64,000 bases of DNA. Source: Mycobacterium florentinum (GTDB lineage Bacteria > Actinomycetota > Actinomycetes > Mycobacteriales > Mycobacteriaceae). The translations under genes and the position numbers were made by a program. The stretch covers positions 3,100,001-3,164,000 of the forward strand of contig NZ_AP022576.1 in assembly GCF_010730355.1 (NCBI RefSeq), written 5' to 3'. Of the stretch, positions 53,891 through 55,606 are shown in pieces. The notes under the pieces are model-generated. The model was given only the letters and a program-made list of their open reading frames with translations, was not told where the DNA came from and searched no databases. Every line of letters starts with the position of its first letter. Within the stretch, counting starts at the first letter, position 1.

Positions 53891-55483
53891 TCACCTTTCC
53901 ATCCGGCGACGGCCCGGTGAATTGCGGTCGACGCCGTCGCGGTCCCAGCTGCCCGGGAGCATCGGCATGCGGGGCCCACCCCCGAATTCATCCCCGGCCA
54001 GGGTGGTCAGGCCCGCTGCGGCGGCCGTCTCCTTGCGCGCCGTGCCGGTGAACCCGAGATTCCCGGCGCCCCGATCCGACGCCTTTGACACCCCGGCCGG
54101 CAGCGCTCCCCAATCCGGGTCGACGTCGACGTTCATGTCCATGAACTCGTCGTCATGGCCGTGCTGCCGAGCCCGTCGCCGACGCCAGGCCCGGGCCTGC
54201 TCCCGGGCGGCAGCCGCGGCCGAATCTGGCTCGGGCGCCTTCTTTTTCGCGCCGGCCGCCGCGCCGGCACTCATCCCGGTGCCAAACCCGATGCCGGGTG
54301 GGGCGACGAAGTAGGGCGACGCAAAACCCGGCCCGGCGGGAGGCGGTGCCGGTGGCGCCGCGCCGGCCCCGGCGCTGGCCGCGGGAGTCGGTGCTGGTGC
54401 CGTCGCGGGAGCCGCGGCCGGGGCGGCGATGAGCGTCGTCCCGAGCACCGCCGGCAGGCTGGGCACCTCGGGCGCGCCCGGTGGCGGCACCGGCACCGCC
54501 GCAGGTGCGGGCAGTGCGGCGAGCCCCGCAAGACCGGCGACCGCCCCGAAGGGCGCAACCGCGACGAGCATGGGAAGCAACAGCAACTGCGGCGCGGCCG
54601 GGAGAAAACTAGCGAGCTGGGCCAGGTGGGTCGGCCAGTCCAGCAGCACCAGCTCGGTGATGAATTGGAAAGCCGCCGCGGGGTTTTCCAGCAACAACTG
54701 CCCGAATCGTTGAAAATCCGAGAAAAGCTCGACGGCTCGAGCGACCCACCACAGCAATTCGCCGGGGTTCGTATAGGCATCCAGTGGGAGTCCGTTCAAA
54801 GTCCCCTCAACGGGGTCCCAATCGATACCGAAGGCCCGCAGGATCTGGGCGACGAACCGGTTGAGCCAACTGTCGAAGCCGTGCTCATGGCCCTCGTGAT
54901 CGTGGTCCTCTTCTTCCTCGTGGTCGTGCGCGGTCGAGGCCTCGGATCTCAGGATCTGCGGCGCCGGCTCGGCCTGCGGTGTGGCCGCCACCGCCGCACT
55001 GGAGACGGCCTGATAGGTCGTCATCGTGCCGGCCGCCTGAACCCACATCCGCGCGTAGTCGGCCTCGTTGACCGCGATCGGAATCGTGTTGATGCCAAAG
55101 AAATTCGTCGCCATCAGCACGCCGTGGACGGCGTGGTTGGCGGCCAGCTCGCCCAACGTCGGCATGGCCCCCAGCGCCGCGGTATAGGCCGTCCCGGCCG
55201 TCTCATGCTGCGCGGCCGCCGCCGCGCTGTGGGCGCTGGCCTGCGTCAACCACGCCAGATACGGGCCATGTGCCGCGACGCAGGACTCGGCGCCGGGCCC
55301 CTGCCACACCCCGGCGTGCATCGACGCCAGCACAGCTCTGAGTTCTTCTGCGGCCGAGGCATATTCGGCGCTGATCGAACTCCACGCGGCCGCGGCGGCG
55401 AACATCGAGGAGGGCCCCGGGCCACTGCTCAGCAGGGTTGAGTGGACCTCCGGCGGCGAAGCCATCCAAATCGGGGCGGTCAT
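53891..55483 (-). CDS. PPE3: PPE3, PPW-subfamily PPE with His/Glu-rich stretch
   Basis: A 530-residue PPE protein: MTAPIWMASPPEVHSTLLSS, WxG turn GVWQGPGA at Trp60, FFGINTIPIAVNEADYARMW, C-terminal GFTGTARKE and PMLPGSW. Between the PPE domain and the rest it carries HDHEEEEDHDHEGHEH (residues 186-201), six His among acidic residues, a likely metal-binding segment. Position next to the Rv0281-like gene fits Rv0280. A Zur-like palindrome, a hairpin and an overlapping leader ORF lie upstream, which suggests control by zinc. Confidence 0.9.
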   Translation of the reverse strand: MTAPIWMASPPEVHSTLLSSGPGPSSMFAAAAAWSSISAEYASAAEELRAVLASMHAGVWQGPGAESCVAAHGPYLAWLTQASAHSAAAAAQHETAGTAYTAALGAMPTLGELAANHAVHGVLMATNFFGINTIPIAVNEADYARMWVQAAGTMTTYQAVSSAAVAATPQAEPAPQILRSEASTAHDHEEEEDHDHEGHEHGFDSWLNRFVAQILRAFGIDWDPVEGTLNGLPLDAYTNPGELLWWVARAVELFSDFQRFGQLLLENPAAAFQFITELVLLDWPTHLAQLASFLPAAPQLLLLPMLVAVAPFGAVAGLAGLAALPAPAAVPVPPPGAPEVPSLPAVLGTTLIAAPAAAPATAPAPTPAASAGAGAAPPAPPPAGPGFASPYFVAPPGIGFGTGMSAGAAAGAKKKAPEPDSAAAAAREQARAWRRRRARQHGHDDEFMDMNVDVDPDWGALPAGVSKASDRGAGNLGFTGTARKETAAAAGLTTLAGDEFGGGPRMPMLPGSWDRDGVDRNSPGRRRMER

Positions 55484-55539
55484 TGCCGGGCACCCGCGCT
55501 GAGATCCAACGGGGCGACCGCGGCCTGCGACGTCATCAC
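55480..55539 (-). other. Leader ORF MTSQAAVAPLDLSAGARQ overlapping PPE3
   Basis: GTG 55539 or ATG 55536 opens a frame of 18-19 residues whose TGA overlaps the PPE3 ATG (ATGA). AGGAG (plus-strand CTCCT, 55546-55550) is 6 or 9 bases upstream. PPE3 itself has no visible ribosome binding site, so coupled translation is likely. Confidence 0.55.
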
Positions 55540-55540
55540 C

Positions 55541-55582
55541 GGCAACTCCTGGGCTGGGAAGGCTAAAGGGTTGCCAGGAGTT
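55541..55582 (-). promoter_or_regulatory. Hairpin hiding the leader ribosome binding site
   Basis: AACTCCTGG (55544-55552) pairs perfectly with CCAGGAGTT (55574-55582), so in the RNA the AGGAG of the leader ORF would be in the stem. GGCAAC (55541-55546) and GTTGCC (55570-55575) form an alternative helix that shares bases with the first. Two exclusive helices around a ribosome binding site are the layout of an RNA switch. Confidence 0.5.
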
Positions 55583-55585
55583 TAA

Positions 55586-55606
55586 TGATAATGATTGTCG
55601 TTATCA
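55586..55606. promoter_or_regulatory. Zur (FurB)-like box upstream of PPE3
   Basis: Arms TGATAATGA (55586-55594) and TCGTTATCA (55598-55606) are an inverted repeat matching at 8 of 9 positions around TTG. This is the A/T-rich dyad typical of Fur/Zur operators. It lies about 100 bases upstream of PPE3; M. tuberculosis Rv0280 is, as I recall, in the Zur regulon. Confidence 0.75.

What the first reader, a model, noticed from the sequence alone, without database searches (positions are those of the whole stretch)
53891..55606. Zur-like box, RNA hairpin and leader ORF in front of a PPE with a His/Glu-rich metal-binding stretch
PPE3 carries HDHEEEEDHDHEGHEH at residues 186-201, six His among acidic residues, in the linker after the PPE domain. 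About 100 bases upstream is a Fur/Zur-type palindrome (arms TGATAATGA and TCGTTATCA). A zinc-starvation promoter in front of a secreted protein with a zinc-binding tract suggests a direct role in zinc capture at the cell surface (a PPE zincophore or zinc porin partner). PPE proteins are not generally described this way.
Basis: partly seen in the sequence, partly recalled or inferred. Interest (0 to 1): 0.82.

Follow-up and report, generated by a model that had tools for sequence, protein, structure and literature searches.

The report
Zinc-starvation PPE protein with histidine tract
A mycobacterial protein of the PPE family, whose gene carries a zinc-starvation switch, has a stretch rich in histidine and acidic residues that looks suited to holding zinc, and in the related genes sampled such a stretch comes almost only together with that switch.

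Summary
The palindrome is two overlapping Zur boxes (32.6 bits, best in the window; null maximum 15.2), inside a sigma-70-like promoter. The gene is the orthologue of M. tuberculosis PPE3, whose Zur control is published: that half is not new. The tract is. In a genus-wide sample 20 of 21 tract-bearing PPE3-like genes have their own Zur box, against 39 of 125 without a tract (OR 44); a second sample of 50 genes repeats this (10 of 11 against 13 of 39), as does a tree-aware test (p 8e-4). One exception ends an operon with a 36.9-bit box; the other has a sub-threshold site. The M. tuberculosis protein that I take for PPE3 has DDDHDHDHDHGG. Of 46 PPE genes in the window's genome only PPE3 has a strong box and a tract. 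The RNA hairpin is not supported; the leader ORF is best read as the relic of a lost PE gene. Best reading: an exported, Zur-derepressed PPE whose flexible tract loosely collects zinc at the envelope. Zinc binding is untested, and 39 of 59 boxed relatives lack the tract.

The parts
53891..55483 (-). PPE3 orthologue, 530 aa, PPE-PPW subfamily
   Evidence: Pfam PPE 209 bits and PPE-PPW 76.6 bits; best match in another genome 87% identical
54980..55468 (-). PPE domain (residues 6-168), closest solved relative PPE4
   Evidence: Pfam; PDB 6uuj_B E 2e-67 over residues 1-177
54881..54928 (-). His/acidic tract HDHEEEEDHDHEGHEH (residues 186-201) in the linker after the PPE domain
   Evidence: mixed synonymous codons
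53945..54085 (-). PPE-PPW C-terminal region (residues 467-513)
   Evidence: Pfam PF18878
55583..55603 (.). Zur box, main register
   Evidence: 32.6 bits, best site of the window; null maximum 15.2
55589..55609 (.). Zur box, second overlapping register 6 bp away
   Evidence: 17.8 bits
55579..55607 (-). sigma-70-like promoter TTGATA-17-TAAACT around the Zur box
   Evidence: 1 site found in 55450-55800, 0.1 expected; consensus match only
55480..55536 (-). leader ORF MTSQAAVAPLDLSAGARQ*, overlaps the PPE3 start as ATGA; probable relic of a lost PE gene
   Evidence: codon-position differences 151/140/177 among 8 equal-length leaders of relatives
55546..55550 (-). Shine-Dalgarno AGGAG of the leader ORF, invariant in 13 aligned sequences (window and 12 relatives)
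   Evidence: alignment A2
52913..53818 (-). SAM-dependent methyltransferase (LCM, TIGR00027), Rv0281-like, next gene downstream
51214..52710 (-). second PPE-PPW gene, PPE3-like paralogue without His tract and without its own Zur box
   Evidence: L003; Pfam
50855..50875 (.). second Zur box of the window, in front of eccA3
   Evidence: 25.3 bits
48798..50651 (-). eccA3, start of the ESX-3 cluster
   Evidence: Pfam EccA N-terminal domain and AAA; assignment to ESX-3 by gene order

Best explanation
PPE3 is the first gene of a Zur-repressed unit beside ESX-3. With enough zinc, Zur sits between -35 and -10 and blocks transcription; in zinc starvation the gene is derepressed. The protein is exported by a type VII system to the cell envelope. 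The flexible His/Asp/Glu tract between the PPE bundle and the C-terminal half binds several Zn2+ loosely and acts as a zinc-collecting antenna or shuttle, passing zinc to a PPE-dependent entry route and on to the inner-membrane importer (a ZnuA gene is present in this genome). Shown here: gene, tract, box, promoter-like hexamers around it, and the box-tract association in two gene samples. Published for the orthologue: Zur control. Inferred: export, disorder, zinc binding, transfer.
For: Zur box of 32.6 bits inside a promoter-like site. Tract (>=4 His per 16 aa of the linker) with own Zur box (>=18 bits): 20 of 21, against 39 of 125 without tract. Second sample, 50 other genomes: 10 of 11 against 13 of 39. 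The exception L193, the same gene as L037:8283-9764, is the last of five in a PE-PPE-EsxG-EsxH-PPE row headed by a 36.9-bit box. Correlated-evolution test LR 14.2, p 8e-4. 0 of 146 intragenic control stretches reach 18 bits. Of 46 PPE genes found in this genome only PPE3 has a box over 10 bits and only PPE3 has 5 or more His in 16 residues. Reverse search from H-D-H-[DE]-H-[DE]-H: 3 of 30 examined loci are PPE, all 3 Zur-boxed, 2 of them new. Acidic linkers without a box are His-poor in 7 of 8 cases. The M. tuberculosis, M. avium and M. decipiens records have the tract, M. kansasii a shorter one of 3 His. The genome's Zur-boxed ZnuA has no His-rich loop.
Against: No zinc measurement of any kind. 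39 of 59 Zur-boxed PPE3-like genes lack the tract, so it is not needed for whatever the family does in common. In the named, pattern-biased set the association is weaker (15, 2, 56, 34; OR 4.6, p 0.05). Tracts range from 4 to 19 His, and some boxed relatives have 2 or 3. M. tuberculosis ppe3 mutants were reported defective on lactate and other carbon and nitrogen sources (PMC13102306, passages) and with high mycobactin (PMC7058343, passages), which points to a broader nutrient role. Export and surface location are not shown for this protein. The tree is weakly resolved, and the paired-contrast test had only 2 usable pairs.
Confidence: 0.5

Rival explanations
1. PPE3 is a general nutrient or metallophore channel partner, and the tract is a zinc-responsive gate or sensor rather than a collector: it closes or opens the route when zinc returns.
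For: ppe3 mutants had reduced fitness on lactate, glycerol, propionate, asparagine and others (PMC13102306, passages) and with high mycobactin (PMC7058343, passages). 39 of 59 Zur-boxed relatives lack the tract. [quoted passage not shown]
Against: Very long (DH)n tracts in several species suit binding capacity better than gating; no gate structure is known, and no structure could be predicted here.
Confidence: 0.2
2. The tract is a nearly neutral low-complexity expansion in a linker that tolerates acidic residues; its match with the Zur box is shared ancestry.
For: Some tracts are near-uniform GACCAC or GACCAT repeats (L204, L141). Linkers of boxed relatives are very diverse.
Against: At least 9 changes of tract state on the tree, and the association survives a tree-aware test. 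Of 8 strongly acidic linkers without a box only that of L193, the operon gene, has a tract. Most of the tracts listed mix synonymous codons.
Confidence: 0.12
3. The tract binds another metal (Ni, Co, Cu, Fe) or protects against metal or acid, and Zur control reflects the ESX-3 neighbourhood only.
For: His/Asp tracts bind several metals (general knowledge). ESX-3 also serves iron (PMC3796483, passages). The reverse search also found such runs in HypB- and nitrile-hydratase-like proteins (these names are recalled from the sequences).
Against: 11 tract-bearing genes with their own Zur box show no methyltransferase-eccA3 neighbourhood in the flanks held (some flanks are short), so the neighbourhood does not explain the link.
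Confidence: 0.1
4. The leader ORF and an RNA hairpin form a zinc- or translation-sensing leader that controls PPE3.
For: Shine-Dalgarno and the overlap with the PPE start are kept in the near clade; a 9-bp inverted repeat touches the Shine-Dalgarno in the window.
Against: Hairpin z -1.87 and not conserved; its 5' arm should lie before the transcription start; no peptide constraint; a graded series from intact PE genes to leader ORFs explains the ORF.
Confidence: 0.05

Closest known systems
M. tuberculosis PPE3 (Rv0280)
   Same: Zur control published (PMC10470581, PMC7863910, PMC13102306, passages); the record P0128, named only 'PPE family protein [Mycobacterium tuberculosis]' and taken by me for PPE3, has DDDHDHDHDHGG at the same place
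   Different: Four His instead of six. The one functional study does not contain the word histidine in its main text (PMC13102306)
MAP3737, zinc-induced PPE of M. avium paratuberculosis
   Same: PPE3-like, two Zur boxes, 75-fold up under TPEN (PMC4298942 Tables 1 and 2, section read)
   Different: Its own sequence was not fetched, so its linker was not checked; one M. avium PPE3-like record (P0040) lacks a tract while another (P0025) has one
ZnuA His-rich loop and PA4063 of P. aeruginosa
   Same: Zur-controlled periplasmic zinc proteins with flexible His-rich stretches of micromolar zinc affinity (PMC8561739, passages)
   Different: Solute-binding or ferredoxin-like folds; no PPE domain; Gram-negative periplasm
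PE5-PPE4 of ESX-3
   Same: PPE4 is the nearest solved relative of the PPE domain (6uuj); ppe4 is the main PPE gene of iron use (PMC7058343, passages)
   Different: The ESX-3 copy in this genome (L004) has no tract and no own box; iron rather than zinc

Membership tests
PPE-PPW subfamily | N-terminal PPE domain | tested here: met
   Pfam PF00823 209 bits, cut-off 26
PPE-PPW subfamily | C-terminal PPW region | tested here: met
   PF18878 76.6 bits, cut-off 27
Zur regulon | Zur box in the promoter | tested here: met
   32.6 bits, between promoter-like -35 and -10
Zur regulon | Zur binding and zinc-dependent expression of this gene | not testable with these tools
   Zur binding shown elsewhere for the orthologous promoter (PMC7863910, passages)
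Zinc-capturing (zincophore-like) protein | His-rich candidate metal site | tested here: met
   six His in 16 residues
Zinc-capturing (zincophore-like) protein | measured zinc binding | not testable with these tools
   none available
Zinc-capturing (zincophore-like) protein | export to the cell surface | not testable with these tools
   inferred from the PPE domain only
PE-PPE gene pair | intact PE gene just upstream | tested here: not met
   only an 18-codon ORF here; a PE-like ORF of 101-113 aa stands in 13 of 13 boxed relatives with a gap of 329 nt or more, 4 of 4 tried confirmed as PE by Pfam
Structured RNA leader | conserved, significant fold | tested here: not met

The most novel reading that the evidence does not exclude
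Mycobacteria have repeatedly fitted zinc-collecting His/Asp tracts into Zur-controlled PPE proteins. These supply the missing cell-surface step of mycobacterial zinc uptake, including in M. tuberculosis, where the tract has stood unremarked in PPE3.
Probability: 0.35. Interest if true: 0.86.

Novelty: new variant of a known kind. Interest (0 to 1): 0.66.

Why it matters
How zinc crosses the mycobacterial outer membrane is not settled: a 2013 study says zinc uptake systems had not yet been identified in mycobacteria (PMC3796483, passages); a later isonitrile zinc metallophore of M. tuberculosis is recalled and comes from no call. PPE proteins are being linked to nutrient entry (PMC13102306, passages). 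A PPE class marked at once by a zinc-starvation promoter and a zinc-type tract gives a concrete, testable candidate and a reason for the Zur control of PPE3. It also gives a simple rule, box plus tract, for finding more.

Tried and rejected
RNA hairpin as a regulator: rejected. Leader peptide as a conserved or zinc-sensing peptide: rejected; it has no His or Cys in the window, and differences among 8 relatives are spread nearly evenly over codon positions. Tract as a plain acidic linker: weakened. Neighbourhood as the only cause of Zur control: weakened (one search listed boxed genes only). Independent-pairs test: uninformative, 2 supported pairs. Structure of the C-terminal half: not obtained. 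The window protein as query did not list an M. tuberculosis record among its best 120; the M. persicum protein did. Pfam does not recognise the two shortened PE-like ORFs tried (L189, L152), so those are called PE remnants by eye. The relative of the His-rich protein L311 found in L319 has no Zur box in the stretch held.

Full report
WHAT IS THERE. The ORF 53891..55483 on the minus strand encodes a 530-aa PPE protein with the C-terminal PPW region. It is the PPE3 orthologue by position: downstream on the same strand lie an Rv0281-like methyltransferase, a second PPE gene and eccA3 of ESX-3. The genome has 6,219,859 bases. Among named loci the best PPE-domain matches include M. triplex, M. montefiorense and M. 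genavense, so I take it for a member of the M. simiae complex (inference). The tract starts about ten residues beyond the stretch that matches the solved PPE4 chain (residues 1-177), so it should lie outside the PPE bundle (inference).

THE BOX. A 21-bp symmetric matrix from the 19 boxes of PMC4298942 Table 2 (section 8 read in full) gives 32.6 bits at 55583-55603, the best site in the window. The second best is 25.3 bits in front of eccA3. The highest score in 15 simulated 64-kb sequences was 15.2. A matrix without PPE and ESX-3 boxes gives 31.7 for the same site. A second register 6 bp away scores 17.8. A sigma-70-like site, TTGATA-17-TAAACT, brackets the box (1 found, 0.1 expected). A loose pattern count, in which a palindrome counts on both strands, gives 7 matches in the window against 1.4 expected; none of 100 shuffles reaches 7.

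WHAT WAS KNOWN. Zur control of PPE3 is not new. PMC10470581 lists Rv0280 under Zur. PMC13102306 says it is regulated by Zur and, to its authors' knowledge, otherwise not experimentally characterised. PMC7863910 shows Zur binding the rv0280 promoter by gel shift. PMC4298942 reports MAP3737, PPE3-like, 75-fold induced by zinc chelation. These were read as passages, PMC4298942 also as section 8; the primary Zur regulon paper is not held. I found no paper that describes a His tract in PPE3 or a His-rich PPE. The searches were made; many of the papers they list were seen only in the listing, among them the single hit, on MctB (PMC12859517). Most subscription papers are absent from the library, so this is not proof of novelty.

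FIRST SAMPLE. PPE3-like genes (E <= 1e-70) from 98 genomes drawn evenly from the genus (73 have a match), plus own-genome loci. The hit list was cut at its end. I used the loci it returned and fetched 109 more stretches around listed hits, chosen to cover the start of the protein. 154 genes were found and 146 usable; 8 were dropped for short upstream or short protein, one of which, L099, has both tract and box. With a tract defined as at least 4 His in 16 residues of the linker and a box as at least 18 bits within 450 nt: 20 both, 1 tract only, 39 box only, 86 neither (odds ratio 44, p 2e-8, not corrected for kinship). The other eight threshold pairs tried give odds ratios of 41-51, and the matrix without PPE boxes gives the same table. 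None of 146 intragenic control stretches reaches 18 bits. The single tract-only gene, L193, is also L037:8283-9764, the last of five genes in a PE-PPE-EsxG-EsxH-PPE row whose head has a 36.9-bit box (the PE confirmed by Pfam; EsxG and EsxH named by eye).

SECOND SAMPLE. From 50 genomes not in the first sample (34 have a match) I took the 30 returned loci and the next 20 stretches in list order that cover the start; the rest of the list was not examined. 54 genes were found and 50 usable: 10 both, 1 tract only, 13 box only, 26 neither (odds ratio 20, p 0.0012). The tract-only gene L334 has a weak 14.9-bit site at -389. Of the 4 dropped genes one (in L325, 238 aa) has a tract and no box of its own; its locus also holds a PPE with a 36.9-bit box, probably the same operon type. 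In the named but pattern-biased set (where one of six search patterns was part of the tract itself) the table is 15, 2, 56, 34, a weaker link (odds ratio 4.6, p 0.05). The tract-only genes there are the one in L037 and that in L031, whose contig ends 314 nt upstream.

KINSHIP. On a tree of the PPE domain, which leaves the tract out, the tract state changes at least 9 times. A Pagel-type likelihood test prefers tract change dependent on the box: LR 14.2, p 8e-4; with the operon gene counted as boxed 17.7, p 1.4e-4. The tree is poorly resolved (19 of 143 inner branches starred) and the independent-pairs test was uninformative, so I call this good but not final.

WITHIN THE GENOME AND IN REVERSE. 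Of 46 distinct PPE genes found in 44 stretches of the window's genome, only PPE3 has a box above 10 bits (next 9.6) and only PPE3 has 5 or more His in 16 residues; one other gene has 4, near its C-terminus (L250). Starting instead from DNA that encodes H-D-H-[DE]-H-[DE]-H in 148 genomes, 30 loci were examined out of a longer, cut list. Three are PPE genes, with boxes of 29.0, 29.0 and 23.7 bits; one of the three, L290, is already in the first sample as L216.

M. TUBERCULOSIS. The record P0128, named PPE family protein of M. tuberculosis (536 aa), is the best M. tuberculosis match to the M. persicum protein that sits next to the Rv0281-like gene, so I take it for PPE3. It has AAEAADDDHDHDHDHGGEP at the same place. 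M. kansasii has a shorter run with 3 His, below my threshold; M. decipiens a very long (DH)n tract; one M. avium subsp. hominissuis record HDHDDHEHGDDHDHDHG. The M. marinum, M. xenopi and M. riyadhense records fetched have none. Over all 204 proteins held then, 73 reach 4 His in 16; their upstream DNA was not seen.

IS IT JUST LOW COMPLEXITY? Most of the tracts listed mix GAC/GAT, CAC/CAT and GAA/GAG codons, although a few are near-uniform repeats (L204, L141). Acidic linkers occur without a box too: 8 of 87 have 7 or more acidic residues in 16, but only L193, the operon gene, also has 4 or more His.

LEADER AND HAIRPIN. The gap between box and PPE start forms a series. In 13 of 13 relatives with a gap of 329-364 nt a PE-like ORF of 101-113 aa fills it; 4 of 4 tried are PE by Pfam. 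Between 183 and 288 nt four of five have a shorter ORF of 60-84 aa that begins or ends like a PE to the eye, though Pfam sees none in the two tried. With gaps near 100 nt, as here, an 18-21 codon ORF meets or overlaps the PPE start, and below 76 nt no leader ORF was found. So the leader ORF is best read as the relic of a lost PE gene, kept perhaps for its Shine-Dalgarno and translational coupling (inference). Its peptide shows no constraint. The hairpin is not significant, not conserved, and its first arm probably is not transcribed.

OTHER SITES. Tract-bearing genes sit at the ESX-3 position in some species. In 11 others of the named set no methyltransferase-eccA3 neighbourhood is seen in the flanks held, some of them short (which listed boxed genes only). 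In L017 the copy lies just before two genes that I read as Rv3400- and Rv3401-like (names recalled). PMC1660551 (passages) places MAP3490, most like Rv0280, next to Rv3400, and PMC4298942 Table 1 reports MAP3491 and MAP3492, the Rv3400 and Rv3401 orthologues, 22- and 10-fold up under zinc chelation. This fits a Zur promoter in front of that copy (inference).

MECHANISM. Shown: gene, tract, box, promoter-like hexamers, association. Published for the orthologue: Zur control. Inferred: export by a type VII system, disorder, loose binding of several Zn2+, handover to an entry route. This genome has a Zur-boxed ZnuA (36.7 bits), but that ZnuA has no His-rich loop (at most 2 His in 16 residues), which leaves room for a separate collector. 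Against it stand the tract-less majority of boxed relatives and published ppe3 phenotypes on carbon sources and mycobactin (PMC13102306, PMC7058343, passages).

VERDICT. Zur-controlled PPE3: already known. A His/acidic tract that recurs with the Zur box across the family: apparently new, well supported by sequence. Zinc capture: plausible, untested.

Noticed in passing
L310:640-2472 (+) and L311 about 1264-1842 (-): Two exported-looking, extremely His-rich non-PPE proteins with Zur boxes just upstream (28.4 and 37.1 bits), in genomes with one weak (G085) or no (G068) PPE3-like hit; a weak relative in L319 has no box in the stretch held.
   Followed up: partly
L283 (own genome C1:4238000-4240800): The genome's ZnuA is Zur-boxed (36.7 bits) but has no His-rich loop.
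   Followed up: partly
L096 and L141: In genome G026 one Zur-boxed PPE3-like gene has a Cys pair (EEDCDEC) in the linker where another in the same genome has a long (DH)n tract.
   Followed up: no
window 51214-52710: A second PPE-PPW gene between the methyltransferase and eccA3, a PPE3-like paralogue without tract or box.
   Followed up: partly
L022, L029, L042, L044, L053: Zur-boxed PPE3-like genes with a 41-42 nt gap whose 5' region folds unusually stably (z -3.4 to -4.3), unlike the window's.
   Followed up: no
L266 (own genome C1 near 390524): A CobW-like gene (named by eye) with a 32.4-bit Zur box and its own short His stretch.
   Followed up: no
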